From the NCBI GenBank assembly GCA_030426845.1, contig JAUHXR010000011.1, positions 1 to 63,353 of the forward strand: a stretch of DNA of 63,353 nt, given 5' to 3'. Under the pieces are notes generated by a model. The model searched no databases. It was not told the DNA's origin and was given only the letters and a program-made list of their open reading frames with translations. The translations under genes were made by a program, and so were the position numbers. This document shows, one piece after another, positions 5,386-61,800 of the stretch (positions are counted from its first letter, which is position 1; every line of letters begins with the position of its first letter). This DNA comes from Polyangia bacterium (GTDB taxonomy: Bacteria; Myxococcota_A; Polyangia; Polyangiales; Sandaracinaceae).

Positions 5386-5386
5386 C

Positions 5387-7189: not shown

Positions 7190-7284
7190 CTGTGTGCCTC
7201 CTCCGTCGCGCGCCTGGCGACTCGAAGACCCTACGGAGGGCTCGCGCGGTGGTCTGTTACCGGGTTAGCGCGGATCGCGCGCGG

Positions 7285-8787
7285 TCAGCGCCACCGGGTG
7301 GGCTCGGAGAACGTCGTGTCCTCCACGCGGTACTCGATGCGGCGCCCGACGCGCCGCCCCTCGACCGCGCCGCTCTCGGTCAGGCTCTGCAGCGCGGTCT
7401 GCGCGGTGCGAAGCGGGACGCCAAGCTCCTTGGCCGCGTCCCGCGCGCTCTGGTGCTCGGCCCGCGCGAGGAACCGCAGCATCCGATCCTCGAGGGACTC
7501 TTCGCAGCGAGGATCGGCGAGGAGCAGGGGCTCGACCAGGCGGAGCGCGAGCCGGTCACCGTCGACCTCCATCTCGCCGCGGACGCCCAGCCAGCGCCGC
7601 ATGCGGTGCTGGAGCGTGCGGAACGTGCCGTCGTGGAGCTCCGCGTCGAACCCGAACCCGTAGATGCGCCGGAAGAGCTCCTCGCGATCCAGTCCCGCGG
7701 GCCCGGCCGCGGCGAGGACGCCGATGGCGAGCTGGGTGCGGCCGGGCTTCAGCGGCTCGTGGCGGACGCCGAGCGCGCGCTGAGCGAGGGGCGCGGCGAG
7801 CCCGGCCACCCGACGCGCGGTGCCGTCGGGGCGGACCGCGACGAACACCCCGGCGGGGACGCCCTCGGCCGCGGTGCAGAGCCCGGCCATCGCCGGCGGC
7901 GTCGTGTGGACCTCGCCCTCGCAGAAGCGCCGAAGCGGTGGCGGCAGCGCGTCGAGGGGCGCGCGCGGGTCGAGCAGGGCGAGCGCCACCGTGAGCTCCG
8001 CGGCCTGGCGCGGCCAGTCACGCGTCGCGTCGACGAGTCGCGTGCGGGCCGACGCGAAGGCCTCCAGGTCCGCGGCGCGCGCCGCGCCGAGCAGCTCCGC
8101 CCAGGCCGCGGCCCGGTCCTCGGGCAGCGAGGGCGCGCGGCCGCCGATCGCCTGCTCCCACGCGAGCCGCGGCCACCAAGGCGACGACGCCACCTCCGCC
8201 AGCGCGTGCAGGATGCGCAGCGCGAGGTGCGGCGCGCCCTCGAGCCGGCGGACGCGCGCGAGGACCAGGTTCGAGAGGTACTGCGACTGCGGCAGGTCCT
8301 CGGTCCGGGCCATCCGGGAGGCCCGCCGCGCGAGGACGCGGGCGTCCCCGAGCTCGCCTCGATCCGCGTACGCGAGCGCTCGCAGGCTCGCCGCCTCGAC
8401 GCGGGTGGCGGGGAAGCTCGAGCGCTGCTCCGCCTCGGCGACCTGCGCGGCGCCCTCCGCGTCCCCCCGCGCGAGCCGCGCCCAACCGCGCGCGAGGCCC
8501 GCGGTCGGCGCCAGGGCCGCGTAGGCGTCGAGCCGCGCACGGTCACTCGCCAGCCAGGCCGCGCGGGCGTGCTCGTCGATCGCGTGGCCGCGCCCCTCGC
8601 CGCCGTCGGCGCCGAGGGCGGCCAGCGTGGCCGGCTCCTCGAGCGCCCCGACCTTCGGGTCCGCGAGCCAGCGCTGCGCCTGGATCGCCGCGCGCCACCA
8701 GCCTGACGGCGCGTTCGCGAGCCACGCGGAGGACGGCCGCAGGTCGCCGGCGAGGCCGCGCGCGAACACCTCCGCGGGATCGAGCAT
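7285..8787 (-). CDS. Helical-repeat transcriptional regulator with C-terminal winged-helix domains
   Basis: 500 residues from the ATG at 8787; the reading frame stays open far upstream but only as the shadow of the divergent gene. Residues 1-270 are Ala/Arg/Leu helical repeats of TPR-like character (RGELGDARVLARRASRMA). About 365-425 resembles an OmpR/SARP-type winged helix (LKPGRTQLAIGVLAAAG, then ELHDGTFRTLQHRMRRWL). The last 60 residues form a second HTH (SARDAAKELGVPLRTAQTAL...VEGRRVGRRIEYRVE). It may control the divergent lipoprotein-kinase operon or the DUF1592 operon; no target is proven. Confidence 0.72.
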   Translation of the reverse strand: MLDPAEVFARGLAGDLRPSSAWLANAPSGWWRAAIQAQRWLADPKVGALEEPATLAALGADGGEGRGHAIDEHARAAWLASDRARLDAYAALAPTAGLARGWARLARGDAEGAAQVAEAEQRSSFPATRVEAASLRALAYADRGELGDARVLARRASRMARTEDLPQSQYLSNLVLARVRRLEGAPHLALRILHALAEVASSPWWPRLAWEQAIGGRAPSLPEDRAAAWAELLGAARAADLEAFASARTRLVDATRDWPRQAAELTVALALLDPRAPLDALPPPLRRFCEGEVHTTPPAMAGLCTAAEGVPAGVFVAVRPDGTARRVAGLAAPLAQRALGVRHEPLKPGRTQLAIGVLAAAGPAGLDREELFRRIYGFGFDAELHDGTFRTLQHRMRRWLGVRGEMEVDGDRLALRLVEPLLLADPRCEESLEDRMLRFLARAEHQSARDAAKELGVPLRTAQTALQSLTESGAVEGRRVGRRIEYRVEDTTFSEPTRWR

Positions 8788-10491: not shown

Positions 10492-11837
10492 TCGGGTACC
10501 GGACGGTGCGCGCGCTCGCCAAGGGCGGGATGGGTCGCGTGGAGCTGGTCGTCCGCCAGGAGGGCGAGTTCCGCCGCGCCTACGCCCGCAAGCGGCTACA
10601 CGCGGCGCTGGCGGGCGACCCGGAGGCGCGCGCGATGTTCACGGAGGAGGCGCGCATCGCGGGCCTGCTCCACCACCCGAACGTGGTGAGCGTGATCGAC
10701 GTCGGCGAAGACGAGGAAGGCCCGTTCCTCGTGATGAGCTACGTGCAGGGCGTCAGCATCTCCGAGCTGCTCCGGGAGCTCGCGCGACGCGAGGAGCTCC
10801 TGTCCCAGCAGGTCGCCTTGCGCATCTTCATCGAGGTCGCGCGTGGGCTCCACGCGGCGCACGAGCTGGTCGGCCACGACGGCGAGCGCCTCGACATCGT
10901 GCACCGTGACGTCTCTCCACAGAACATCCTCGTCGGCTTCGACGGCGTCGCGCGCCTCACCGACTTCGGCATCGCCAAGGCGCGCGTGCGCGACGGACGC
11001 ACGAGCGCGGGCGTGCTCAAGGGCAAGCTCGGCTACTTCGCGCCCGAGCAGCTCCGCTTCCAGCCGGTCACCCCGCGCACCGATCTGTTCGCGCTGGGCG
11101 TCGTCCTCTTCGAGGCGCTCTCCGGCCGGCGGCTCTACGGGGACGCCTCGACCGAGGAGGTCGCGCGGCGGATCCTCGACGAGCCTCCACCGGACCTCTA
11201 CGACGTGCGGCAGGACCTCCACCCTGCGCTCAGCGAGCTGCTCTTCCGGCTCCTCGCGAAGCGCCCGGAGAAGCGCCCCGCGGACGCCGACGAGGTCGCC
11301 GACGCGCTCGAAGCGATCCTCGTCGAGGTGCTCGCCGAGGAGGAGCCCACGTCGGTTCGCGCGTACCTGAAGCATCGCTTCGCCGGACGTGAGGAGGCCG
11401 AGCGGACGCTCATCGAAGCGGCCACGACCCAGGTCGGTCCGCCCTCGCGGCGGCGCTGGATCGTCGCGGCAGTGGCCAGCCTGGCGCTGGGCGGCGCGGT
11501 CGCCGGGGGCCTCGCCGTTCGAGCCCACTTCGCGGCCGTCGACGCGCCTGCACGCCCGGTCGCCGCCGCCAGCCCCGCCCCGACCGCGACGGGGCCCCGG
11601 GAGGCGGCGGAGGACGCGCGCGCCGCCGAAGAGGCGCCCGAGCCGATCGCGGAGCCCACCCCCCCGACCGAGGAGCCCCCTCCCCTGCCCCCGCCGCCCC
11701 GCGCGGCGAGAGGTCGGCGCTCCGGCCGCGCCCGACGCGCCGCGCCCACACCGGCGGCGGCGCCGCCGACCGCGCCCGCGCCGACCACGCCCACGCGCCC
11801 CGCGCCGGACGATGAGCTGATGGGGTGGGGACGATGA
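10488..11837 (+). CDS. Membrane-anchored Ser/Thr protein kinase (PknB-like)
   Basis: 449 residues. Kinase domain about 1-285 with glycine loop ([10 protein letters not shown]), Lys35 of the ATP site, catalytic loop HRDVSPQN (His139-Arg-Asp141), DFG at 159-161, and APEQL in the activation segment: all core catalytic residues are present. HRDVSPQN is a common myxobacterial variant. A transmembrane helix at about 324-346 is followed by an Ala/Pro/Arg-rich extracytoplasmic tail without a recognisable sensor domain. It is coupled to both neighbours by ATGA overlaps, forming a lipoprotein-kinase-TPR operon. Substrates are unknown. Confidence 0.93.
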
Positions 11838-12643
11838 GGCTCGCCCTCGCATGGCTGCTCGGCCTCGCGGTCGCAGGGCCCGCGACCGCGCGCGCCCAGC
11901 CCTTGAACGCTCAGCCCTCGAACGGCCGGCCCTCGAACGCTCAGCCCCCGAACGGCCGGCCCTCGAACGAGGAGGCCGACGTCTCGATGGTCACGATGCG
12001 CGCTCGCGCGCTGTTCGAGCAGGCGCTCGAGGAGCTCCGCGAGGGCCGCGCGGCCGCGGGCCGCGATCTGCTCCGGCGCTCGCTCGCGATCCTCCCGACG
12101 GTCGCGACCCGGTACAACCTGGCGGTGGCGCTGCGGCGCACCGGCGAGGTGACCGAGGCGCAGTTCGTCCTTCAGCGTCTCCTCGAGGAGGGGCTCGAGG
12201 AGCCGGAGCGCGCGCGGATCGAGGCGCAGCTCGAGGCGGTCCGAGCCCAGATCGCGACGCTCGTCATCACGGTGAGCGGCGGCGCGGCGGCCGCGCAGAT
12301 CGAGGTCGACGGCGTCGAGGTCGGGCAGAGCGGCCCGCGCCCGCTGCGTGTGCAGGTCGACCCGGGGCGCCATCGGGTGGCGGCGCTCGAGGGGACGCTG
12401 CGAGGGACGGCGGACGCCGAGGTAGACGCGGGTGACGCGCGGCCGATCGCGCTGCGCCTGGCGCCGTTCGCCGATCCGGCGGCGGAGGGCGTCGATCCCT
12501 GGCCGTGGGTCGTGACCGCGATCGCGGTGGTCGCGGCCGGGGTCGCGGTCGGGCTGGGGCTCTACTTCACGATCGGGCAGACGCCCGAGGATCCCTACCC
12601 GACCGCGCGCACCTTCGAGACGCTCGGCGAGGTGCGCTTCTGA
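11834..12643 (+). CDS. Exported TPR/PEGA-like membrane protein of the kinase operon
   Basis: 269 residues; the ATG overlaps the kinase stop. A cleavable signal (LLGLAVAGPATARA) is followed by a Pro/Asn/Ser linker built from 15-bp DNA repeats. A TPR-like helical region (about 50-140, with LLRRSLAILPTVATRYNLAV) and a PEGA-like beta domain (IEVDGVEVGQSGPRPLRVQV, DPGRHRVAA) come next. A C-terminal transmembrane helix (about 222-246) ends in a short tail. In myxobacteria such proteins commonly follow HRDVSPQN kinases; a scaffold or envelope-sensing role is inferred. No catalytic motif. Confidence 0.8.
   Translation: MRLALAWLLGLAVAGPATARAQPLNAQPSNGRPSNAQPPNGRPSNEEADVSMVTMRARALFEQALEELREGRAAAGRDLLRRSLAILPTVATRYNLAVALRRTGEVTEAQFVLQRLLEEGLEEPERARIEAQLEAVRAQIATLVITVSGGAAAAQIEVDGVEVGQSGPRPLRVQVDPGRHRVAALEGTLRGTADAEVDAGDARPIALRLAPFADPAAEGVDPWPWVVTAIAVVAAGVAVGLGLYFTIGQTPEDPYPTARTFETLGEVRF
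11900..11974 (+). repeat. Five 15-bp tandem units inside the TPR/PEGA gene
   Basis: Units of the form CCCTCGAACGCTCAG and CCCTCGAACGGCCGG alternate at 11900, 11915, 11930, 11945 and 11960. They encode a Q/R-P-S-N pentapeptide linker directly after the signal peptide. The period is a multiple of three, so copy-number change would keep the frame and only alter linker length. Confidence 0.9.
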
Positions 12644-12647
12644 GAGG

Positions 12648-13190
12648 TTACGTGGGCTCGCTGGCCGGCTCGGGCGCGGCCGGATCTCGCCGCAGGCTGG
12701 TCACGAGAATCATCCCCACCCCGACCGCGACGAGGACGTCGGCCACGTTGAACGTCGGCCATGAGCCTCCCCAAGGGTAGTTGACGCGGATGAAGTCGAC
12801 GACGCCGGTGCCGCCGCCCGGCGCCTCGCGGAACAGCCGGTCGACGCCGTTGCCGATCGCGCCGCCCGCGATCATCCCCATCGCGAGCGGGCCGTAGAGG
12901 TCGCGCGCGCGCAGCGCCATCACGAGCAGGACGAGCACCATCGCGAGGGCGACCAGACCGAGGACCCACCGCGCCTCGCCGAGGTCGCCGACGAAGCTGA
13001 ACGCGGTGCCCCGGTTGTACGACAGCGCGAGCTCGAGGTACGGCTCGACGAGGCTCATTGTCCAGCCGGGCGCGTCTCGGAGCGTCTCCTCGGCCCAGTC
13101 CTTCGAACGGAGATCACAGCCGCCGCCGAAGAGGGTCATCACGACGAACACCGCGAGGCGCGCCATCCAGGTCCGGGGCTGGGTCGTCAC
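12648..13190 (-). CDS. lspA: Signal peptidase II (prolipoprotein signal peptidase)
   Basis: Inner-membrane aspartyl protease that removes signal peptides from diacylglyceryl-modified prolipoproteins. 180 residues from GTG 13190; an ATG at 13166 is an alternative. Conserved blocks are visible: SYNRGTAFSF (about 58-67), GAIGNGVDRLF with catalytic Asp117, and FNVADV with catalytic Asp151, on four hydrophobic helices. The first conserved block, normally D-x-x-(S/T)-K, is CDLRSK here. It is convergent with the kinase operon and only 4 bp from it. The many lipoproteins in this window would be its substrates. Confidence 0.93.
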   Translation of the reverse strand: MTTQPRTWMARLAVFVVMTLFGGGCDLRSKDWAEETLRDAPGWTMSLVEPYLELALSYNRGTAFSFVGDLGEARWVLGLVALAMVLVLLVMALRARDLYGPLAMGMIAGGAIGNGVDRLFREAPGGGTGVVDFIRVNYPWGGSWPTFNVADVLVAVGVGMILVTSLRRDPAAPEPASEPT

Positions 13191-13314
13191 GCCGGGAGTA
13201 TGGAGCTCGGCAAGGCGCGGCGCGAGGCGAGCGGGCCGCCAGCCGCGCCCTGTCAGCTTTGCTTTCTAGGTCAACTCCCTCGCATCCGACCGCCAGGTCC
13301 CCTACGCTGCGCTC

Positions 13315-13689
13315 GTGAGCTCGGAAGACCGACCCGTCGTCCTCCTGGTCGACGACGATCCGATGGTGCTGCGGGTCACCGCGCGCCTCCTCACGCACCG
13401 TGGCTTCGAGGTGCTCTCCACGAGCCACCCGTTCGAGGTCGGCTCGCTCGTGCGAGCCCATCACCCGGCGGCCGTCGTCCTGGACGTGAACATGCCCGGG
13501 CTCGGCGGCGAGGCCCTCTCGCGCTTCCTGCAGCAGCAGATCGGGCCGTCGCTGCCCATCGTCTTCTACTCGGGCGTCGACGACGCCGAGCTGCGGCGCC
13601 TCGCCGAGGCGAGCTCGCTCGCGAGCTACGTCACCAAGGCGGAGGGCGCCGACGCGCTCGCGACGCGACTCACCGAGCTCACCGGCTAG
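13315..13689 (+). CDS. Stand-alone CheY-like response regulator receiver
   Basis: 124 residues from GTG 13315: a single receiver domain with no output domain. Acidic pocket Asp13-Asp14-Asp15 (LVDDDP), phosphoacceptor Asp57 (VVLDVNMPG), Ser86 (FYSG) at the Thr/Ser switch position and Lys108 (YVTKAEG) are all present, so it should be phosphorylatable. No histidine kinase is adjacent, so its partner must be elsewhere. It lies alone between lspA (divergent) and DUF2330 (convergent). Confidence 0.92.
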   Translation: MSSEDRPVVLLVDDDPMVLRVTARLLTHRGFEVLSTSHPFEVGSLVRAHHPAAVVLDVNMPGLGGEALSRFLQQQIGPSLPIVFYSGVDDAELRRLAEASSLASYVTKAEGADALATRLTELTG

Positions 13690-13711
13690 CCGAGCTCAGC
13701 GCCAGTCGAGC

Positions 13712-14941
13712 TCAGCGGCGGCGACGCACCACGCCGAAGACCGCCAGACCGAGCACCGCGAAGGGCCAGACCGGCAGGGTCGCCATGCGAGTGTCCGACT
13801 CGGTGAGCGCGCCGCCCACCGAGGCGCTCGTCCAGTTCACGTCGTTCTCGACGAAGATCTGAGCCGGAAGCTCGCCCTGGGTGGACGCAGCCAGGATCAG
13901 GTCCTCCCGGAGCGCCTGCGCGGGCAGGTTCGCGCGCATCCGGGTGATCGTGGGGTTGGGGATGCTCTCGACGGCGACCGACCAGTCCGCGGCCGCGCTG
14001 TGCGGCTCACCCGCCTCGTCCCGGATGGTGAAGCCCACGACCGTGCCCCCGTCGGGCATCGCGTACTCGGTCAGCCAGGTCCGCCCCGCGTCCTGACGCA
14101 TCACCTCGTCAGCGAGCGCGTCGTAGTTGTACTCGTCGAGCGCCCAGTCGTAGACGAGCTCGCTCTGGTCGATGACGCCGTTCGGGAAGTTCGCCGCCTC
14201 GTAGCGGCCCTCGGCGATCACGAACAGCTCGAGGGAGACGAAGTCGCCCACCCCCGCCGCGACCATGCGCAGCGGGAAAGCCACGTTCATGCCGGGCGTG
14301 CTCACGCGGACCGGCTGGATGCGGTTGACGCCCTCGCCGGCGGAGAGCCGCAGCGCCACGAAGCTCATGCCCTGATCGACGTAGTGCTCGATCGTCGGCA
14401 GGAGCTCCTCGGGCACCTGGTAGCCTCGCTCGTTCATCCAGTCGTAGAGCGCCATCGCGTCCTCGCTGCCGATCGTCGCCGTCTCGTACGGGCCGACCGT
14501 CCCCTCGTGGAAGACCTGCACCGGCGGCGAGCGCGGGCCGTCCTCCGCCGCGAAGCCAGCGTCCGCCGCGCCGCAGCCGAAGCCGCCTCCGCCGCCCCCG
14601 CCCGTCGAGCGGAATGGGCCGGTGAGCTGGACCTGGGTGGTCTGCTGCAGCGCCTGGAAGAAGGCGTTGTCGGCGAGCTCGACGGTCGTGTTCTCGCCGC
14701 TGGCCACCGGGAGGACCCACACGAAGTCCTCGGGCGAGCCCGCGTACTCGAACTGGTCCCAGAGCACGGTGCGCCGCGTCCCGAGCGACACCGCCATCCG
14801 GTGCGCGGTGACCACGCTGGGCTGTCCGCTTGGCGCGAAGCAGCCGCCGCACGCGGCGGCCGGCGCGGGCGCGAGGGCGGGGAGGAGAAGACCCAGGCCG
14901 AGGGTGGTGACGAGGGCGGCGCGAGGAGAGAGGTGCGTCAT
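13712..14941 (-). CDS. DUF2330 secreted protein with C-terminal membrane anchor
   Basis: 409 residues from ATG 14941. It has a Sec signal (LVTTLGLGLLLPALAPAPAAA) followed directly by the family hallmark CGGCF, then W-D-Q-F-E-Y and WVLPVASG. A hydrophobic C-terminal helix ends in four arginines (VFGVVRRRR), a sorting-signal-like anchor typical of actinobacterial and myxobacterial surface proteins. DUF2330 has no known activity. The longer open frame upstream of 14941 runs into a repeat-containing intergenic stretch and is not supported. Confidence 0.88.
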   Translation of the reverse strand: MTHLSPRAALVTTLGLGLLLPALAPAPAAACGGCFAPSGQPSVVTAHRMAVSLGTRRTVLWDQFEYAGSPEDFVWVLPVASGENTTVELADNAFFQALQQTTQVQLTGPFRSTGGGGGGGFGCGAADAGFAAEDGPRSPPVQVFHEGTVGPYETATIGSEDAMALYDWMNERGYQVPEELLPTIEHYVDQGMSFVALRLSAGEGVNRIQPVRVSTPGMNVAFPLRMVAAGVGDFVSLELFVIAEGRYEAANFPNGVIDQSELVYDWALDEYNYDALADEVMRQDAGRTWLTEYAMPDGGTVVGFTIRDEAGEPHSAAADWSVAVESIPNPTITRMRANLPAQALREDLILAASTQGELPAQIFVENDVNWTSASVGGALTESDTRMATLPVWPFAVLGLAVFGVVRRRR

Positions 14942-50536: not shown

Positions 50537-52155
50537 TCTCGCCGCGCCTCCGCGAGCGCGCCCCAGAGGTGCCCGCCCTCGGCGTCCACCACCGCGAGCG
50601 CGTGGCCGATGCGCGCGGCCACCACGTAGCGCCCCGGGCGCCCCTCGAGGAACACCACCGCACCCGGCCCGAGCTCCTGCGCGCGCACCTCGTCCTCGTC
50701 GACCCACTGGTCGACCCCGTCGCTCCGGGCCACCCGCACCCGGCCGGGCTCGCTCTCCACCGCGAGCCCGGGCCGCCACGCGCCCTCGCTGCGGACGTCG
50801 ACCCACGCCCCCGGCGGGATCTCGTAGCGCCTCCCTTCGCCCTCGCGGTGGGCTCCGTCGATCGCGATCCGCACCCGCGCCGCGCTCGTCCAGCGCGAGT
50901 CGAGCCCGTCGACCTTCAAGGCCGGCCCCACCCGCGCGAGCACGGTGGCCGGCCGGTAGCGCGCCCCGTCGAACACCTCGACCGCGTCGCCCTCGGCGAG
51001 CTCGGGCGCGAGCACGTCCCGCCGGCCGACCCAGTCCGCGGCGCCGTCCGCGTAGATGACGAAGGCGCGCCCGCGCCGCACCCGCGCGACGACCGCGAGC
51101 TGGAACCAGCGAGAGCCCTCGCCGAGCCGCGCGAGGACCTGGGTGCCGACGTAGAGCGGCGCGTAGGGTCGGCTCGGCGCTCCCGGCGGTGGCTCCGTGG
51201 CCGCGTCGCTCGCGCGCGCGGTGCCCTCCCCCCGGTGCTCGAGCTGCGGCTCCTCGTGCACCACCCCGAGCGGAGCCTGCAGCGCCCCCGGCGGCGCGAG
51301 CGGCACCCCGACGAGGTAGAGCGTCGCGATCGCGAGGCCCCCCGCGCCGAGCCAGGTCATCCCCGCGAGGCTCCACCCCGAGGCGCGCGGCCGCACCCTC
51401 GCGCGGGCCCTCCCCCGCCAGCGGCTCGCGCGCACCGCCGGGTCGCTCGACGCCGCGATGATCAGCCCCGCCGCCTCGAGGAGCCGCCCGCCGCACCGAC
51501 CGCAGTCCCGCTCGGCAGCCTCGTCGGCCTCGCGCGCGAGCAGCGGCGCGTCGCACCGCGGGCAACGCTCGCTGACACGCCGCTCACGCGCCTCGGCCAC
51601 GTCCGCCTGGATCGCCCGCCGCGCCCTCCGCCAGGCGAGCGCGGGCCCGAGGAGCAGCAGCGCCGCGAGGGCGCCGGAGACCCCCCACGCCACGACCGGC
51701 GCCTCGAGCGCCCCGCCGACCCGCACCCCGAGCGCGACCATCGTCCCGGCGACGACCAGCGACGCGACCGCGAGCAGCCCCTCCTCCGCGAGCGTCGGCC
51801 CCGCCCGACGCCCGGCCTCGCGCCAGCCCCGCAGAGCCTCCGCGCGCCAGGCGTCAGCGCGCCTTGCGACCTCGCGCGGTGGCGACCCGGACCCGGACCC
51901 GGACCCGGACCCGGACCCGGACCCGGACCCGGACCCGGACCCGGACCCGGACCCGGACCCGGACCCGGACCCGGACCCGGACCCGGACCCCGACCCGGAC
52001 CCGGACCCGGACCCGGACCCGGACCCGGACCCGGACCCGGACCCGGACCCGGACCCGGACCCGGACCCGTCACGCGAAGACGCTTCGCGCGACGCCCCCG
52101 AGGGCGCGGCCTCCTCGCGCGCGGCCGCCTCGCGCGGAGGCGTCGGCTCGCTCAC
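50533..52155 (-). CDS. Membrane protein with (GS)n tract, zinc ribbon and SH3-like repeats
   Basis: 540 residues from GTG 52155, overlapping the VanY gene stop (GTGA). An N-terminal Ser/Gly-rich tail (about 30-91) is a perfect Gly-Ser alternation from DNA hexamers. Two hydrophobic helices (about 110-165) follow, then a zinc-ribbon (CPRCDAPLL...CGRCGGRL), a third helix (about 245-268) and a C-terminal series of Tudor/SH3-like strands (VLARLGEGSRWFQLAVV, VFDGARYRPATVLARVG, ASVDVRSEGAWRPGLAV-type). Neighbours are a PrimPol-HAD gene and a VanY gene, all overlapping. Role unknown. Confidence 0.68.
   Translation of the reverse strand: MSEPTPPREAAAREEAAPSGASREASSRDGSGSGSGSGSGSGSGSGSGSGSGSGSGSGSGSGSGSGSGSGSGSGSGSGSGSGSGSGSGSGSPPREVARRADAWRAEALRGWREAGRRAGPTLAEEGLLAVASLVVAGTMVALGVRVGGALEAPVVAWGVSGALAALLLLGPALAWRRARRAIQADVAEARERRVSERCPRCDAPLLAREADEAAERDCGRCGGRLLEAAGLIIAASSDPAVRASRWRGRARARVRPRASGWSLAGMTWLGAGGLAIATLYLVGVPLAPPGALQAPLGVVHEEPQLEHRGEGTARASDAATEPPPGAPSRPYAPLYVGTQVLARLGEGSRWFQLAVVARVRRGRAFVIYADGAADWVGRRDVLAPELAEGDAVEVFDGARYRPATVLARVGPALKVDGLDSRWTSAARVRIAIDGAHREGEGRRYEIPPGAWVDVRSEGAWRPGLAVESEPGRVRVARSDGVDQWVDEDEVRAQELGPGAVVFLEGRPGRYVVAARIGHALAVVDAEGGHLWGALAEARRE
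51884..52069 (+). repeat. 31 tandem copies of a GACCCG hexamer
   Basis: An uninterrupted 186-bp run of the hexamer GACCCG with a single G-to-C change at 51991. On the minus strand it reads GGG-TCC, giving an exact Gly-Ser alternation. The one change is synonymous (Ser TCC to TCG). Length variation would alter only the linker and keep the frame. Confidence 0.95.
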
Positions 52156-53603: not shown

Positions 53604-54096
53604 CGCGGCACTGAGTGGACCACCGGGTCGGGGGCCGCGCAAGAACCCGCGCCGGGAGGCCCGGAGCGGCCGCCATCCCGAGCACGCGGGCCCATCCCGC
53701 CTCGTGCACGTCCACTTCCTCGTGCACCTGCAGGTACTCCGTGCGCCTCCTCGTCCTGCGCTGGGGCGGCCTGGCGTGGGCCTGCGTGTACCCGGGAGGA
53801 CAGGAGGCCGGGAGCTCCTGTGCGCGGAAGCTTCGGAGAGCTCTCCCCCCGTTGACCGCACCACACCGAGCGCGGGGTCGGTCACACCTCACGTGCACGG
53901 GACGCGAGGAGGCCCGGAGAGAGGAGCGTGCACCAATCGCGGGGACCGTGGTCGCGCAGTCCGTGGCCGCACAGTCCGTGGTCGCACAGTCCGTGGTCGC
54001 ACAGTCCGTGGTCGCACAGTCCGTGGTCGCACAGTCCGTGGCCGCACAGTCCGTGGTCGCACAGCCCGCAAGACACATCTCGGCTGCACCTCGGGC
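53604..54096. other. Intergenic region between LysR and VanY genes
   Basis: 493 bp with no credible gene. It holds a CTCGTGCAC-rich stretch around 53700-53745, the likely promoter of the VanY operon, and an eight-unit 15-bp array at 53951-54070 just beyond the LysR gene end. Frames opened by the 15-bp repeat encode only Cys/Thr/Asp pentapeptides and are not supported. Confidence 0.6.
53951..54070 (+). repeat. Eight-unit 15-bp intergenic tandem array
   Basis: Units GTCGCACAGTCCGTG (GCC variants in two, and diverged edge units) repeat eight times with exact 15-bp period between the ends of the LysR gene (54097) and the VanY operon. No spacers, so not CRISPR. Confidence 0.92.
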
Positions 54097-55026
54097 TCAG
54101 GCGCCGGGGATCTCCCCGCGCGGTGGCTCCGGCCGCCAGAGGAACGAGCGCTCGTCCCGCTCGAGCAGGCCGCGGAGCAGCGGGTGGGGGTAGCGGCGCT
54201 CGGCGGTGATCGCGAAGAAGTTCTCGTAGAGGTCCGGCACCACCGCGTGCTCGCGGAGCACCCCCGAGGTGATCTCGTCGCGCACCACGACCGACGGCAG
54301 CAGCGCGACCGCGCCCGCGTCGATCGCGAGCAGCCGGAGCATCGCCATGTCGTCGACCTCGGCGAACACCCGCACCGTGATCCCGAGCCGCGCGCAGGCC
54401 GCATCGAACGCGGTCCGGATGTCGCTTCGGCCGCTCGGCAGGACGAGCCGCGTCCCCGCGACGTCGTCGGGCCAGACGAACGGCTCGCTCCGAGGCCGCC
54501 CGATGAGGCTCACCCGCTGCCGCGCGAGCTGCCAGCACCGGAGCGACGACGCCATCGCCGGGCTCAGCGGTCGGTTCGTCAAGACGACGTCCAGCGCGTG
54601 ATCCGCGAGCCGACCGACCAGCTCGTCGGCCCCGCCGCTCTCCATGCTGATGCGCACGTCCTCGCGACGGAGCAGCGGCGCGACGAACGAGTCCTGGAAG
54701 TTGCGCGACAGCGTCGCGACCGCGCCGATCCGGAGCACGTGTCGGCCCGAGCGTCCGTCGCCCAGCGTGGTGAGCAGCTCGCTGCCCGCGGCGAAGATGT
54801 CGTCGGCGTACTCGAGCGCGATCTTGCCCGCCTCGGTGAGCTCCAGCCGGCGGCCAGCCCGCGCGAAGAGCGGCTGGCCGAGCTGGTCCTCGAGGGCCCG
54901 GATCTGCTTCGACAGCGCGGACTGCGAGACCCGCAGCCGACGCGCCGTCCGCGTCAGGTTGCCGTCCAGGGCGACGGCCCAGAAGTAGCGCAGGTGGTGG
55001 AAGTTGAGCTCGGTCAGCCGCGACAT
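54097..55026 (-). CDS. NhaR-like LysR-family transcriptional regulator
   Basis: 309 residues. The N-terminal winged helix is distinctive: LNFHHLRYFWAVALDGNLT, VSQSALSKQIRALEDQLGQ and LELTEAG match the NhaR branch of LysR regulators, followed by the two-lobed effector domain. It is divergent from dabB across 74 bp, and a 5-bp dyad lies at its start, so it most likely regulates the inorganic-carbon operon and itself. The effector (bicarbonate, Na+ or pH) is unknown. Confidence 0.9.
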   Translation of the reverse strand: MSRLTELNFHHLRYFWAVALDGNLTRTARRLRVSQSALSKQIRALEDQLGQPLFARAGRRLELTEAGKIALEYADDIFAAGSELLTTLGDGRSGRHVLRIGAVATLSRNFQDSFVAPLLRREDVRISMESGGADELVGRLADHALDVVLTNRPLSPAMASSLRCWQLARQRVSLIGRPRSEPFVWPDDVAGTRLVLPSGRSDIRTAFDAACARLGITVRVFAEVDDMAMLRLLAIDAGAVALLPSVVVRDEITSGVLREHAVVPDLYENFFAITAERRYPHPLLRGLLERDERSFLWRPEPPRGEIPGA

Positions 55027-55045
55027 CGTTCACCTCAGACGAACG
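55027..55045. promoter_or_regulatory. Candidate LysR operator dyad
   Basis: CGTTC-N9-GAACG, a perfect 5-bp inverted repeat containing the T-N11-A LysR box, immediately before the LysR start codon and 56 bp before dabB. It suits autoregulation plus control of the divergent dab operon. Confidence 0.5.
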
Positions 55046-55100
55046 AAGCGTAGCCCATTTTGTCTTTTTCAAGAACTATCGGGCGACCTAGAACCGCGGC

Positions 55101-56690
55101 GTGGAAACGGAGATGCTTCTGGGGGCGCTGAGCGCCGCATCGGTCGGCGCGCTCGCGCTGGGCACTTTGGGAGTGGGGTCTCGCGAGCCCCTGGGTCGCG
55201 GGGCGCAGGTGACCGCGCTCGCCGCCGCGCTCGCGGTGCTGGCGGTCGCCGCGTGGGGGCTCGGGGGCGCGGGGACGGTGATCGTCCGCGGGCCCGACGG
55301 GCCGCTGAGCCCGATCCTCCCCTCGCTGCGGTTCGACGCGGTGACCGCGGTCGTCCTGTCGCTCGTCGCGCTGATCGGCGTCGTCGTCACCCGCTACTCG
55401 CGCCGCTACCTCGACGGCGCGCCCGGCCAGGCGCGCTACGCGCGGGCGATGCTCGCGACGCTGGCCTCGGTGGTCGCGCTCGTCCTCTCGAACAGCCTCC
55501 TCTTCGTCGGCCTCGCCTGGGTCGGCGCGAGCCTCGGACTGCATCAGCTCCTGACCTTCTTCCCCGAGCGGCCCCGGGCGATGGCCGCGGCGCAGAAGAA
55601 GTTCGTCTTCAGCCGCGTCGCGGATCTCTGCCTCGCGGTGGCGACCGGGATCGTCGGGGTGTCGGTCCACGACCTCGAGCTCGACGCGATCTACGCCTGG
55701 AGCGCGCAAGCCCCGGAGCTCGACCTGGCCATGCAGGTCGCGACCGTCCTGTTCGTCGTCGGGGCCGCGCTGAAGTGCGCGCAGCTCCCCTTCCACGGCT
55801 GGCTGGTGCAGGTGATGGAGGCGCCGACCCCCGTGTCGGCGCTCCTCCACGCCGGCGTGGTGAACATCGGCGGCTTCCTGATGATCCGCCTGGCGCCGCT
55901 GATGGCGCACGCCGACGTCGCCCAGACGGTGCTGCTCGGGATCGGCATCGCGACCACCGTCAGCGCCGCGCTCGTCATGAGCGCGCAGACCAGCGTCAAG
56001 GTGACTCTCGCGTGGTCCACCGCCGCGCAGATGGGCTTCATGCTCGTCCAGTGCGCGCTCGGCGCCTACTCGCTCGCGCTTCTCCACCTGGTCGCGCACT
56101 CGCTCTACAAGGCGCACGCCTTCCTCAGCTCGGGCAGCGCGGTGGAGCAGCGGCGCGTCGCGAGCCTTCGCCCGTCCCCCGCCCCGGCCCGGCTGCGCGA
56201 CTGGATCGGCGCGCTCGCGGTCGGCGGCCTCGTGGTCACCCTCGTCGCGCTCGCGCTCGGCGTCGAGCCCACCGAGGAGCCGGCGCTCCTCGCGTTCGGC
56301 CTGGTGCTGTCGATGGCGATCGCCCCCCTCGTCCTCGCCGAGCGCGGCCGCGGCGCCACCCGCGTCGGGCTGACGACCGCGCTCGGGGTCGGCGTCGTCG
56401 CGCTCTACTTCGGCTGGCACCTGAGCTTCGGCGCGCTCGTGGACGCGCCCGCCGTGCCGCTCGAGCGCCTCGCCCCGCGGCTCGCGATCGCGGCCGCCGG
56501 CTTCGCGACGCTGCTCGGCCTCCAGCTCGCGCTCCTCCTGCGCCCGCGCGGCGCGCTGGCCCTCGCGCTCGAGCCCCGGCTCGCGGCCGGGCTGCACCTC
56601 GACGAGCTGCTCACCCGCGCGCTCCTCCGACGCGGAGCCCCGCGCTCGGGGACCCGCGACGAGCCCATCAAGGCGGAGATTGCCCGATGA
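55101..56690 (+). CDS. dabB: DabB: proton-conducting subunit of the DAB inorganic-carbon transporter
   Basis: 529 residues from GTG 55101; ATG 55113 is an alternative. About 13 hydrophobic helices of the NADH-quinone oxidoreductase subunit 5/antiporter family, with FFPERPRAMAAAQKKFVFSR, CAQLPFHGWLVQVMEAPTPV (conserved Lys and His region) and LVAHSLYKAHAFLSSGSAV. In the DAB complex this subunit lets protons drive the cytoplasmic carbonic-anhydrase-like partner. The stop overlaps the dabA ATG (ATGA), with an AAGGCGGAG ribosome-binding site. Confidence 0.92.
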   Translation: METEMLLGALSAASVGALALGTLGVGSREPLGRGAQVTALAAALAVLAVAAWGLGGAGTVIVRGPDGPLSPILPSLRFDAVTAVVLSLVALIGVVVTRYSRRYLDGAPGQARYARAMLATLASVVALVLSNSLLFVGLAWVGASLGLHQLLTFFPERPRAMAAAQKKFVFSRVADLCLAVATGIVGVSVHDLELDAIYAWSAQAPELDLAMQVATVLFVVGAALKCAQLPFHGWLVQVMEAPTPVSALLHAGVVNIGGFLMIRLAPLMAHADVAQTVLLGIGIATTVSAALVMSAQTSVKVTLAWSTAAQMGFMLVQCALGAYSLALLHLVAHSLYKAHAFLSSGSAVEQRRVASLRPSPAPARLRDWIGALAVGGLVVTLVALALGVEPTEEPALLAFGLVLSMAIAPLVLAERGRGATRVGLTTALGVGVVALYFGWHLSFGALVDAPAVPLERLAPRLAIAAAGFATLLGLQLALLLRPRGALALALEPRLAAGLHLDELLTRALLRRGAPRSGTRDEPIKAEIAR

Positions 56691-59131
56691 CCCCGACCCC
56701 CACCGCGCTCCGAGACACCCCCACCGCGGTCGACGACGCGATCGCGATCGCGCTCTGCCGCATCGCCCCGAGCTGGCCCCTCGACCGACTCGCCGCGGTG
56801 AACCCGTACTGGGGCTTCCGCGACCTCCCCGTCCCCGAGGCGTCGGGCGCGCTCGCCGCGCTGTGCGGCAGCTCCCTCCTGATGCCTCGCGCCTACTACC
56901 GCGCGCAGCTCCGCGACGGCGGCTTCACGACGGATGACCTCGCGCGGGTCGTCGGCGCGAAGGCCGCCGCGCGGGTCGCCGCCGAGCTCGCCGAGGATCG
57001 CGCCCCGCGCGCCCGGCGCCCCTTGGTCAGCGACCTCGCGGACGCCGACCGCGACCCCGAGGAGCCGTCCTTCGTCGACTCGGTCGTCGACCACCTGAGC
57101 CGCACCTGCGCGGCCTACTTCGACCAGGGGCAGCGCCGCGTGCCGAGCGTCGACGAGAGCCTCTTCGGTGCGTTCCGGCGGCGCGGCGCGGTCGACCTCG
57201 GGCCCGCGATCACCCTGGGCCTGCGCGGGTTCGCGGCGAGCGTCGCGCGCCTGCCCGCGGACCCCGTCGCCACGATCGCGGAGTGCCTCGCGCGCGCCGA
57301 CGTCGGCGACGAGGCGCCCGCCTACCTCACCGCGCTGCTCCTCGACGTCGGCGGCTGGGCCTCGTACTGCGCCTACCTCCGCCACGTGGCCCAGCTCGAC
57401 GGGGGCGACGACCCGCACCTCCTCGAGCTGCTCGCGGCCCGCGCCGCGTGGGAGCTCGCGATCCGCGACGGCGCCCCGCGCGCAGACACGCGGTGGCGGC
57501 GCGAGTCGCGGCGCTGGGCCGACATGGCCCGCGACGCGGTGGCCGCGGAGTCCGCCGACTGGGCGGCGCACCGCGCGATGGAGCTCGCGTACCAGCGCGG
57601 CCTGGTCGACGGCCTCGCGCGCCCGCCCGCGCCGGACGCGACGGAGCCCTCGGCGCGCGCGGTGTTCTGCATCGACGTGCGCTCCGAGCCCCTACGGCGC
57701 GCGCTCGAGCAGGCCGCGCCCGACGTCCGCACCCACGGCTTCGCGGGCTTCTTCGGCCTGCCCGCCGAACACCTGCCGCTCGCGGGACACGTCGCGCAGC
57801 CGCAGCTCCCCGGCCCCCTCGCGCCGCGCGTGCGGGTCGTGGACACCGCGCCCCCGGACGCCGCGCAGCGCCGCGCGGCCCGGCTCGATCTCGGCGCGGC
57901 CTGGTCGACGTTCAAGTCGACCGCGTCCTCGAGCTTCTCGTTCGTCGAGGGGCTCGGCCTCTTCTACGCGGGCAAGCTCCTCACCGACGGCCTCGGGTGG
58001 ACGCGCCCCACCACCGCGCCCGACGCCGCGGGGCTCTCCGCGCGCGAGCGCGCGGCGCTCAAGCCGCGGCTCGAACAGCTCCGCGGCGGCGGCCCGGTCC
58101 CGCACGAGACGCGCGTGGATCTCGCCGAGGGGATCCTCCGGGGCATGGGCTTGATCGGCGCCCACTGTCGGCTCGTCGCCCTCGTCGGCCACACCAGCCG
58201 CACGACCAACAACCCGCACGCGGCGGGCCTCGACTGCGGCGCGTGCTGCGGCCACAGCGGCGAGGTCAACGCGCGCGCGGTCGCGGCGCTGCTCAACGAG
58301 CCGGCGGTGCGCGAGGGCCTCGCGGCCCGCGGGCTCTCCGTCCCGACAACCACCCACTTCGTCCCTGGCCTCCACGACACGATGACGGACGAGGTCACGC
58401 TGCTCGACCTCGACGAGGTGCCCGCGAGCCACGACGACGACGCGCGCCGGCTCACCGACGCGCTCGGGCGGGCGAGCGCCGCGGCCCGCGACCGGCGCGC
58501 CGCCTCGCTCGGCCTCAGCGAGCGAGGCGACGCGCTGCGCGCGACCCTCGAGCGCCGCACGCGCGAGTGGTCGGAGGTGCGGCCCGAGTGGGGGCTCGCG
58601 AACAACGCCGCGTTCGTGGTCGCGCCGCGGAGCCGCACCGAGGCCCTCGACCTCGGCGGCCGGGTGTTCCTCCACGACTACCGGTGGAGAGACGACGAGG
58701 GCTTCGCGACGCTCGAGCTCATCATGACCGCGCCGATGATCGTCACGCACTGGATCAACCTCCAGTACCTGGCGTCCACGGTGGACAACCGGCGCTTTGG
58801 CGCCGGCGACAAGGTGCTGCACAACGTGGTCGCGGGCGGCCTCGGCGTCCTCGAGGGCAACGGCGGCGACCTGCGCGTCGGGCTGCCGCTCCAGTCGGTC
58901 CACGACGGCGAGCTCCCGGTGCACACGCCCCTGCGCCTCGCGGTGGCGATCGCGGCCCCGCCCGGGCCGATCCTCGACGTGATCGCGCGCCACGCGACGG
59001 TGCGCGAGCTGGTCGACCACGGCTGGCTCGATCTGCTGCGGCTCGACGACGACGGACACGTCGAGCGCTACCGGGCCGGCACGTTCGTGCGAGAGCAACC
59101 CAGCGCGCCGACGAGCGCGGAAGGAGAGTAG
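56687..59131 (+). CDS. dabA: DabA: zinc-dependent CO2-hydrating subunit of the DAB transporter
   Basis: 814 residues (DUF2309/UPF0753), normal length. The beta-carbonic-anhydrase-like site has Cys328 and Asp330 (VFCIDVRSE) plus His502 and Cys517 (GHTSRTTNNPHAAGLDCGAC). The His-to-Cys spacing of 15 equals that reported for the Halothiobacillus enzyme (His524, Cys539), so all four key residues are retained. With DabB it forms an energy-coupled pump that converts CO2 to bicarbonate inside the cell. Two bases separate it from the IDH-like gene. Confidence 0.94.
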   Translation: MTPTPTALRDTPTAVDDAIAIALCRIAPSWPLDRLAAVNPYWGFRDLPVPEASGALAALCGSSLLMPRAYYRAQLRDGGFTTDDLARVVGAKAAARVAAELAEDRAPRARRPLVSDLADADRDPEEPSFVDSVVDHLSRTCAAYFDQGQRRVPSVDESLFGAFRRRGAVDLGPAITLGLRGFAASVARLPADPVATIAECLARADVGDEAPAYLTALLLDVGGWASYCAYLRHVAQLDGGDDPHLLELLAARAAWELAIRDGAPRADTRWRRESRRWADMARDAVAAESADWAAHRAMELAYQRGLVDGLARPPAPDATEPSARAVFCIDVRSEPLRRALEQAAPDVRTHGFAGFFGLPAEHLPLAGHVAQPQLPGPLAPRVRVVDTAPPDAAQRRAARLDLGAAWSTFKSTASSSFSFVEGLGLFYAGKLLTDGLGWTRPTTAPDAAGLSARERAALKPRLEQLRGGGPVPHETRVDLAEGILRGMGLIGAHCRLVALVGHTSRTTNNPHAAGLDCGACCGHSGEVNARAVAALLNEPAVREGLAARGLSVPTTTHFVPGLHDTMTDEVTLLDLDEVPASHDDDARRLTDALGRASAAARDRRAASLGLSERGDALRATLERRTREWSEVRPEWGLANNAAFVVAPRSRTEALDLGGRVFLHDYRWRDDEGFATLELIMTAPMIVTHWINLQYLASTVDNRRFGAGDKVLHNVVAGGLGVLEGNGGDLRVGLPLQSVHDGELPVHTPLRLAVAIAAPPGPILDVIARHATVRELVDHGWLDLLRLDDDGHVERYRAGTFVREQPSAPTSAEGE

Positions 59132-59133
59132 AC

Positions 59134-60537
59134 ATGAAGATCAGCGTAGCGAGAGGCGATGGCGTCGGCCCCGAGATGATGGACGCGGTGCTCGAGGTGC
59201 TCGAAGCGGCCGGCGTGCCGCTCACCTTCGAGGCGGTCGAGATGGGCGCGGCTGCGGTGCGCGCCGGGGCGACCGACGGGATCGGGGCCGAGGCGCGGCG
59301 CTCGGTCGAGTCCACCGGGGTGCTCCTCAAGGGCCCGATGCAGGGCGCGACCGACGAGCGCTGCGACCCGGTGAGCGTCGCCGCGCGCAAGCTGTGGGGC
59401 ACCTACGCGAGCAAGCGGATCTACCGCGCGGTGCCGGGCGTCCCGTGCGAGGCGCGCGGCCGCCGCCTGAGCCTCACCCTCGTCTGCGACACCGCGGAGG
59501 ACGCGGCCGGCGCGATCGAGCACGTCTCGCCGCAGGGCGTCGCGCAGTGCCGCCGCCTCATCAGCCGGGCGGGCGCGGCGCAGGTGCACCGCTACGCGTT
59601 CGAGCTCGCCGCGCGCAAGGGCGCCACGCGGATCACCTGCGCGCACCGCGCCGACGTGATGCCCGTCACCGACGGCGTCTTCCTCGAGGAGTTCTACGCG
59701 GTCGCGCGCGACTACCCGCAGATCACCGCCGACGACGACCTCGTCGGCTCGCTCGCGCTGCGGCTGATGTCGCAGCCCGACGCGCTCGAGGTGCTGGTCG
59801 CGCCGAGCCTCCACGGCGATCTCCTCGGCGACATCGCGGCGGGCCTCGTCGGCGGCCGCGCCTACGCGCCGTCGGCCAACGTGGGCGACGGCATCGCGAT
59901 CTTCGAGCCGGTGCACGGGCCGATGCCGGAGCTCGTGGGTCGCGACCGCGCGAACCCGACCGCGCTCCTCCTCAGCGCGACGATGATGCTGCGCCACCTC
60001 GGCCTGCTCGAGCCCTCGCGCCGCATCGAGGCCGCGCTCAAGTGGGTGCTCCACGACATGCACCGCCGGCCCGATCTCGCGCAGCCGATCCCGCCGTTCT
60101 CGACGAGCCTCTTCGTCTCGCTCATGCGCGAGCAGCTCGCCGAGGCGCCGCCGCGAGAGAGCGCGGCGCCGCAGCGCCCCTTCCCCGTACGCCTCGAGCC
60201 CAAGGTCCGCGCGCTGCGCGAGGCCGCGCCGGGCGAGGTGACGGGGCTCGACGTCTTCCTCGAGTCGTCCCTGCCCCCGGCCGCGATCGCGGAGCAGCTC
60301 GCGAAGCTCGGCGGACCCGCGCGGATGAGCGCCCTGCTCAACCGCGGCATCGAGGTGTGGCCGAACGGATCCGTCTACACCGATTGCATCCCGCACTACT
60401 GCGCGCGCTTCGAGGCGGACGCCCCGCTCCCCCGCGACGCGCAGCTCGCGCTCATCGCGAGCGTCGAGGAGCGCTTCACCCTCTCGGGCGTGGAGTGGGT
60501 GAGGACCGGCGAAGCGGCCCTCCGCAAGACGGCGTAG
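59134..60537 (+). CDS. Isocitrate dehydrogenase-fold protein with degenerate active site
   Basis: 467 residues; AAGGAGA lies before the ATG. It has the IDH/isopropylmalate dehydrogenase fold, including MLRHLG and the C-terminal extension of Thermus-type IDH (ending in the NRGIEVWPNGS block). Aligned by eye to E. coli Icd, key residues differ: Ser113 is Pro79, Asn115 is Ser81, Arg153 is Cys118, Tyr160 is Ala125, Lys230 is Arg172 and Asp283 is Gly205; Arg119, Arg129, Asp307 and Asp311 are kept. Probably not a classical IDH; perhaps a regulatory or altered-substrate member. Third gene of the dab operon. Confidence 0.8.
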   Translation: MKISVARGDGVGPEMMDAVLEVLEAAGVPLTFEAVEMGAAAVRAGATDGIGAEARRSVESTGVLLKGPMQGATDERCDPVSVAARKLWGTYASKRIYRAVPGVPCEARGRRLSLTLVCDTAEDAAGAIEHVSPQGVAQCRRLISRAGAAQVHRYAFELAARKGATRITCAHRADVMPVTDGVFLEEFYAVARDYPQITADDDLVGSLALRLMSQPDALEVLVAPSLHGDLLGDIAAGLVGGRAYAPSANVGDGIAIFEPVHGPMPELVGRDRANPTALLLSATMMLRHLGLLEPSRRIEAALKWVLHDMHRRPDLAQPIPPFSTSLFVSLMREQLAEAPPRESAAPQRPFPVRLEPKVRALREAAPGEVTGLDVFLESSLPPAAIAEQLAKLGGPARMSALLNRGIEVWPNGSVYTDCIPHYCARFEADAPLPRDAQLALIASVEERFTLSGVEWVRTGEAALRKTA

Positions 60538-61163: not shown

Positions 61164-61800
61164 TTAGGTGCATCCCCCCGACCCCGCTTGGTGGGACGGG
61201 GCCGGGGAGACGCTTTGGGATGGAGAGCTCCTGCGCGGCCGAACGCCACGCAGGCAAGTCGTCGGTTGATGACCTCCCCGGCCCCGCTGAGTCGGACGGG
61301 ACCGGGGAGGTGCTGGCCTGTGGGTTCGAAGAATCACCGCGCGGCGCACCGCGCAGGGGAGACGGCTCGGGTTGATGACCTCCCCGGCCCCGCTGTGTCG
61401 GACGAGGCCGGGGAGGTGCTGGTCTGACTGGGTTCGAAGAATCACCGCGCGGCGCACCGCGCAGGGGAGACGGCTCGGGTTGATGACCTCCCCGGCCTCG
61501 CGATCGATAGAACGAGGCCGGGGAGGTGCTGGTCTGACTGGGTTCGAGGAATCACCACGCGGCGACAAGAAACCGCGCGGGGGAGACGGTTCGGGTTGAT
61601 GACCTCCCCGGCCTCGCGATCTCGGAGACGAGGCCGGGGAGGTGCTGGTCTGACTGGGTTCGAGGAATCACCACGCGGCGACAAGAAACCGCGCGGGGGA
61701 GCTGGTCGGCGTTAGGTGCCCCTCCCCGGCCTCGCGCCTCTGAAACGAGGCCGGGGAGGTGCGATTGGAACGGAGAGCTCACCGCGCGGCCGCCAAACCA
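61164..61800. repeat. Array of six 100-118-bp units with long palindromes
   Basis: Each unit has a main inverted repeat with stem CCTCCCCGGCCTCG / CGAGGCCGGGGAGG (left arms at about 61174, 61273, 61379, 61487, 61603, 61721) and 10-12-nt loops, followed by a smaller CGCGG/CCGCG hairpin. Units 4-6 have perfect 14-bp stems. Stem pair 12 is C-G in unit 2, C-A in unit 3 and T-A in units 4-6. Units 1 and 6 share variant flanks (GTTAGGTGC, GGAGAGCTC); units 2-5 share others (GTTGATGAC, GGGTTCGA). Confidence 0.9.

What the first reader, a model, noticed from the sequence alone, without database searches (positions are those of the whole stretch)
59134..60537. Probable pseudo-isocitrate dehydrogenase as third gene of a dab operon
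Ungapped local comparison by eye shows loss of Icd Ser113, Asn115, Arg153, Tyr160, Lys230 and Asp283 equivalents (Pro79, Ser81, Cys118, Ala125, Arg172, Gly205) while fold motifs and Asp229/Asp233 stay. The catalytic Lys and Tyr and a metal Asp are changed together. Coupled 2 bp after dabA, it could sense a metabolite or CO2/HCO3- status, or use a new substrate.
Basis: partly seen in the sequence, partly recalled or inferred. Interest (0 to 1): 0.76.

Follow-up and report, generated by a model that had tools for sequence, protein, structure and literature searches.

The report
Catalytically dead isocitrate dehydrogenase in DAB operon
The third gene of a bacterial CO2-uptake (DAB) operon is a relative of the citric-acid-cycle enzyme isocitrate dehydrogenase that keeps the enzyme's fold but has lost most of its catalytic residues, so it is probably a non-enzymatic protein tied to carbon supply; the arrangement has been seen only once, while separate evidence shows that the DAB regulator also sits next to intact isocitrate dehydrogenase genes.

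Summary
The 467-aa ORF at 59134-60537 starts 2 nt after dabA in a divergent lysR / dabB-dabA-orf locus and is a Thermus-type isocitrate dehydrogenase (PF00180 + PF18324). R85, R95, D229 and D233 remain. Of 80 relatives from public genomes, 79 keep the whole set. Isocitrate oxidative decarboxylation is therefore very unlikely, and the genome has an intact E. coli-type Icd elsewhere. Fold constraint persists: 110 of 144 family-invariant columns and 119 of 123 hydrophobic columns are kept, and codon-position GC matches dabA. Its branch is long (1.47 versus 0.23-0.67 in its nearest relatives). Linkage does not recur: none of 26 other dabA loci in the order carries idh. But two other genomes have an intact Thermus-type idh beside a dab-type LysR with the same GTTC-N9-GAAC box. 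Best reading: a pseudo-IDH captured by the DAB regulon and kept as a folded non-catalytic protein; its molecular role is inferred. A decaying gene is the main rival.

The parts
59134..60537 (+). Degenerate Thermus-type isocitrate dehydrogenase paralogue, 467 aa (PF00180 domain aa 2-318; PF18324 C-terminal domain aa 368-458)
56687..59131 (+). dabA, inorganic-carbon transporter subunit, 814 aa; zinc-site residues C328-x-D330-x-R332, H502, C517 intact
   Evidence: Pfam PF10070 E 2e-244; residues matched to those of DabA2 in PMC13144422
55101..56690 (+). dabB, NuoL/Mrp-like membrane subunit; start could be GTG 55101 or ATG 55113; overlaps dabA by 4 nt
   Evidence: PF00361, PF00662; NCBIfam NuoL-like
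54097..55026 (-). lysR, divergent LysR-type regulator of the dab-linked subfamily
   Evidence: PF00126 + PF03466; 46-61% identical to LysR divergent from dabB in 17 other loci; tree
55028..55044 (.). Predicted LysR operator GTTC-N9-GAAC between lysR and dabB
   Evidence: Exact box in the window, in 8 of 17 other lysR-dabB intergenics and in 2 of 2 lysR(dab-type)-idh intergenics; shuffles rarely reach it
55065..55076 (.). Second conserved T-rich element TTTTTCAAGAAC between lysR and dabB
   Evidence: Same or near-same element in most lysR-dabB intergenics

Best explanation
The gene encodes a catalytically dead paralogue of Thermus-type NAD-dependent isocitrate dehydrogenase that was captured as the third cistron of a LysR-controlled dabBA operon and is kept as a folded, non-catalytic protein. 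Shown: gene order, tight spacing, loss of the catalytic residues, retention of core and fold, an intact DabA zinc site, and a separate intact Icd in the genome. Supported by comparison: dab-type LysR and its GTTC-N9-GAAC box also lie next to intact Thermus-type idh genes in two other genomes, so idh can belong to the DAB regulon, which would explain how an idh copy came to be in the operon. Inferred: once a housekeeping Icd covered the TCA step, catalysis was no longer selected. The protein is then made together with the DAB complex, where it most likely works by binding (to a partner protein, or to a residual nucleotide or carboxylate ligand) as an accessory or regulatory factor of carbon supply.
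For: Six of ten catalytic or ligand residues are changed where 79 of 80 relatives keep all ten. Relative to ten Myxococcota orthologues, 34 of 144 invariant columns differ, including R118-E119-N120-I121, T124-Y125 and T71-P72-G74-K78-S79, yet 110 are kept. Catalytic columns are hit more often than other invariant columns (6/10 versus 33/143, Fisher p 0.018), and 119/123 hydrophobic columns stay hydrophobic. GC at codon positions is 0.748/0.513/0.970, like dabA. AlphaFold gives an IDH fold (pLDDT 78; best PDB match 2d1c), with lower confidence at loop 71-80 than in an intact orthologue (55 versus 82). Intact E. coli-type Icd at G000:C22 and no other Thermus-type IDH. LysR tree and operator sharing.
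Against: No close relative with the same gene was found, so current purifying selection could not be measured directly. The end branch is long (1.47), as expected of relaxed constraint too. Linkage to dab occurs once. Nothing shows binding to DabA, DabB or LysR. The dab-type LysR beside intact idh was seen in only two genomes, whose idh genes are sister sequences.
Confidence: 0.5

Rival explanations
1. The gene is a decaying relic: an idh copy that fell into the dab operon, lost its function because another Icd is present, and is drifting while still open because high GC makes stop codons rare.
For: Very long branch (1.47 versus 0.23-0.67 in its nearest relatives); 34 invariant columns lost and the C-terminal YSLAQGQ tail gone; long antisense ORFs in the same stretch show that an open frame means little at this GC; linkage seen once.
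Against: Codon-position GC contrast is intact along both domains (GC2 0.51, GC3 0.97); 119 of 123 hydrophobic columns kept, and 75% identity at invariant columns versus 46% at variable columns; ribosome-binding-like sequence and tight spacing.
Confidence: 0.3
2. It is a neofunctionalised enzyme that still uses the metal pair D229/D233, the two arginines R85/R95 and part of the NAD loop (HGxxP...N274) on a different substrate.
For: These residues are kept.
Against: The general acid/base Lys and Tyr and the third metal Asp are gone together with the Ser, Asn and Arg that hold the substrate; the T-P-x-G loop is scrambled; the D-I pair at the NAD-selecting position becomes E-L.
Confidence: 0.13
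3. It is an inactive partner subunit that forms a heteromer with an active IDH, as IDH3 beta and gamma do with alpha.
For: Precedent of regulatory IDH subunits (PMC5241874).
Against: The genome shows no other Thermus-type or IDH3-type IDH: only E. coli-type Icd and LeuB-like copies. K172 and D205, the residues a partner subunit lends across the dimer, are both lost, unlike IDH3 gamma.
Confidence: 0.05
4. It is an active isocitrate dehydrogenase and the changes are tolerated.
For: Family membership and fold.
Against: Six of ten active-site residues changed, including Lys, Tyr and a metal ligand.
Confidence: 0.02

Closest known systems
Thermus thermophilus isocitrate dehydrogenase (PDB 2d1c) and the PF00180+PF18324 family
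   Same: Two-domain architecture, fold, many invariant positions, R85/R95 and D229/D233 equivalents
   Different: Ser, Asn, Arg, Tyr, Lys and one Asp of the active site replaced; C-terminal YSLAQGQ tail of its own subfamily lost; third gene of a dab operon
Regulatory subunits of eukaryotic NAD-IDH (IDH3 beta/gamma, yeast IDH1)
   Same: IDH paralogue without catalysis of its own
   Different: No catalytic partner of the same type in the genome; has lost the cross-subunit Lys and Asp; prokaryotic; linked to a CO2 pump
DAB (DabA-DabB) inorganic carbon pumps with divergent LysR
   Same: lysR / dabB-dabA order; DabA zinc-site residues C-x-D-x-R, H, C present
   Different: Extra third cistron, an IDH homologue, absent from the 26 other dabA loci examined in the order
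Cyanobacterial LysR regulators of Ci uptake (CcmR/NdhR)
   Same: LysR control of inorganic-carbon uptake; CcmR reported to use alpha-ketoglutarate (the IDH product) and NADP+ as co-repressors (PMC3401165)
   Different: Analogy only; ligand of the window LysR unknown and homology to CcmR not tested here

Membership tests
Thermus-type isocitrate dehydrogenase (enzyme) | PF00180 catalytic domain followed by PF18324 C-terminal domain | tested here: met
   best PDB hit 2d1c by sequence and by fold
Thermus-type isocitrate dehydrogenase (enzyme) | Active-site set Ser, Asn, Arg, Arg, Arg, Tyr, Lys, Asp, Asp, Asp | tested here: not met
   Six of ten replaced; 79 of 80 relatives keep all
Thermus-type isocitrate dehydrogenase (enzyme) | Isocitrate turnover | not testable with these tools
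   Needs protein and assay
DAB operon | dabB (PF00361) and dabA (PF10070) adjacent on one strand | tested here: met
DAB operon | DabA zinc/active-site residues C-x-D-x-R, His, Cys | tested here: met
   C328, D330, R332, H502, C517 against DabA2 C351, D353, R355, H524, C539
DAB operon | Divergent LysR of the dab-linked subfamily with shared operator | tested here: met
DAB operon | IDH as a regular component | tested here: not met
   No idh in 26 other dabA loci of the order, most with about 4 kb downstream
IDH3-like regulatory subunit | Active partner subunit of the same type in the genome | tested here: not met
   Only E. coli-type Icd and LeuB-like hits; genome 95% complete
IDH3-like regulatory subunit | Lys and Asp lent to the partner's active site retained | tested here: not met
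   R172, G205 versus Lys182 and Asp215 of human gamma

The most novel reading that the evidence does not exclude
A non-catalytic IDH is a third, regulatory component of a DAB CO2 pump, coupling central metabolism (NAD(H) or a TCA acid, or the LysR type that also controls idh genes elsewhere) to inorganic carbon uptake in a myxobacterium.
Probability: 0.15. Interest if true: 0.75.

Novelty: new variant of a known kind. Interest (0 to 1): 0.48.

Why it matters
DAB pumps are widespread, but how they are regulated and why many heterotrophs have them is poorly known. An IDH fold with a ruined active site made with a DAB pump, together with a dab-type LysR and operator found beside intact idh genes, suggests that these bacteria tie CO2 supply to the 2-oxoglutarate branch of the TCA cycle. 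The regulatory link is testable in any of the genomes named. The pseudo-enzyme itself is a clean case for studying what a central-metabolism fold does after losing catalysis.

Tried and rejected
Recurring dab-idh linkage: looked for in 184 genomes of the order (dabA search, 26 loci fetched), in the Myxococcota orthologues and in the 80 genome-contig loci; not found. Active partner IDH in the same genome: none. Literature on IDH with DUF2309/DabA: no paper in the held library; a search for IDH pseudoenzymes gave nothing; a loose search for 'DabA' returned mostly unrelated words. Low AlphaFold confidence in the clasp (121-142) was considered as a sign of lost dimerisation and rejected as evidence because the intact orthologue is equally low there, although clasp strands are drawn only in the intact one. 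The second degenerate orthologue (G040: N81D, K172N, D229G) was considered as part of a common pseudo-IDH clade; its substitutions differ from those in the window and it sits after purE-purK, so it looks like an independent event (or, in a low-coverage MAG, possibly error). The idea that the window LysR came along with idh was rejected: it groups with dab-linked LysRs, apart from the LysR that normally accompanies these idh genes.

Full report
What is there. The window carries lysR (54097-55026, minus), then dabB (55101 or 55113-56690), dabA (56687-59131) and an ORF of 467 codons (59134-60537) on the plus strand. dabB and dabA overlap by 4 nt; the ORF starts 2 nt after dabA with AAGGAG just before it. 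Pfam calls DabA (PF10070), the NuoL/Mrp-like DabB, a LysR regulator, and for the third ORF Iso_dh (PF00180, aa 2-318) plus the bacterial IDH C-terminal domain PF18324 (aa 368-458). The best match among solved structures is Thermus thermophilus IDH 2d1c, by sequence (E 1e-84) and by fold of an AlphaFold model. NCBIfam equivalog models for IDH match but score far below their cut-offs (311 bits versus 509 for the best). DabA itself looks functional: the zinc-site residues described for DabA2 (PMC13144422) are present as C328-x-D330-x-R332, H502 and C517.

The columns agree with the isocitrate-binding residues listed for human NAD-IDH in PMC5241874. A scan of public genomes gave 80 relatives at 40-56% identity; 79 keep the full set S-N-R-R-R-Y-K-D-D-D. 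The exception is a Myxococcota MAG (G040, L071) with N81D, K172N and D229G, different from the window's changes.

Degenerate but still constrained. Compared with ten Myxococcota orthologues, the window protein departs from 34 of 144 invariant columns, among them the loop T71-P72-x-G74...K78-S79, the R118-E119-N120-I121...T124-Y125 stretch and D205; the ten others depart at 0-19 each. Catalytic columns are enriched among the lost ones (6/10 versus 33/143, Fisher p 0.018), but 119 of 123 hydrophobic columns stay hydrophobic, and identity to the nearest orthologue is 75% at invariant and 46% at variable columns. GC by codon position (0.748, 0.513, 0.970) equals that of dabA and dabB and holds in both domains. 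The terminal branch is 1.47 changes per site against 0.23-0.67 in its nearest relatives, while the window's DabA branch (0.93) is within the range of its relatives. This is what a folded protein without catalytic selection would show; it is also what the early part of a decline could show. AlphaFold confidence in loop 71-80 is 55 in the window protein and 82 in an intact orthologue modelled the same way; the clasp region is low in both and is not used as evidence.

Not needed for the TCA cycle. The same genome has an intact E. coli-type Icd (G000:C22) and LeuB-like copies (C394, C142), and no other Thermus-type IDH. An inactive-subunit role with a like partner is therefore unlikely.

Linkage survey. 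Searching the order (184 genomes) for DabA and fetching 26 loci showed lysR divergent from dabB in 17 of them and idh in none; genes after dabA differ from locus to locus. Orthologues of the window IDH elsewhere in Myxococcota are not next to dab genes. The 80 public loci also lack dab genes. Instead 8 of 10 orthologues have a LysR beside them or in the same small cluster: divergent in five; downstream on the same strand in one; with a SulP-family transporter in between in G043; upstream of purE-purK-idh in G040. These LysRs form their own clade (100/100), separate from the dab LysRs, and the window LysR belongs with the dab set.

A regulatory link between dab and idh. Two genomes (G045 and G167) have an intact Thermus-type idh divergent from a LysR that falls inside the dab-LysR clade. 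The lysR-dabB intergenics carry an inverted repeat GTTC-N9-GAAC, exact in the window (55028-55044) and in 8 of 17 others, usually followed about 37 bp later by a T-rich element such as TTTTTCAAGAAC; both lysR-idh intergenics of G045 and G167 carry the exact box close to the lysR start, and none of five idh-type LysR intergenics does. In G000 the box followed by G occurs only 12 + 15 times on the two strands of 9.4 Mb, palindromic sites counted twice. So idh genes came under the dab type of LysR without a neighbouring dab operon in G045/G167, and by joining the operon in the window. That gives a simple origin for the window arrangement. By analogy, the cyanobacterial LysR CcmR that controls Ci uptake was reported to use alpha-ketoglutarate, the IDH product, and NADP+ as co-repressors (PMC3401165); whether the window LysR does so is unknown.

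Verdict. The most likely state is a folded non-catalytic protein made with the DAB pump (0.5), then a decaying gene (0.3), then a new enzyme (0.13). The finding is a single occurrence, which keeps the interest moderate; the recurrent part is the regulator and operator shared between dab and idh.

Noticed in passing
L034 (G040:C75) 5138-8281: purE-purK-idh run in which the IDH of the same subfamily has lost Lys (K172N), a metal Asp (D229G) and N81 (to D) but keeps Tyr and Arg: a second, independent degenerate IDH beside CO2/HCO3--using genes.
   Followed up: partly
L038 (G011:C77), L066 (G124:C203), L120 (Sphingobacteriaceae MAG): purE and purK lie next to or near intact Thermus-type idh in further genomes, so an IDH-purEK neighbourhood recurs.
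   Followed up: no
L035 (G043:C53) 10836-14689: Intact idh divergent from a SulP-family transporter (possible bicarbonate transporter) followed by an idh-type LysR.
   Followed up: partly
L063 7338-9836 and L064 37-2529: Intact Thermus-type idh divergent from dab-type LysR with the GTTC-N9-GAAC box; no DabA hit in G167.
   Followed up: yes
L055, L056, L059 intergenic regions upstream of idh: A different inverted repeat, TGT-A/C-GG-N5-CC-x-ACA-like, in three of five idh-type LysR/idh intergenics.
   Followed up: no
window 51884-52069: Hexamer array (GACCCG) x 31, 98% matches, open in several frames on both strands.
   Followed up: no
window 53946-54068: 15-bp repeat CCGTGGTCGCACAGT, 8.2 copies.
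   Followed up: no
window 61264-61762: 116-bp tandem repeat, 4.5 copies, 88% matches, downstream of the operon.
   Followed up: no
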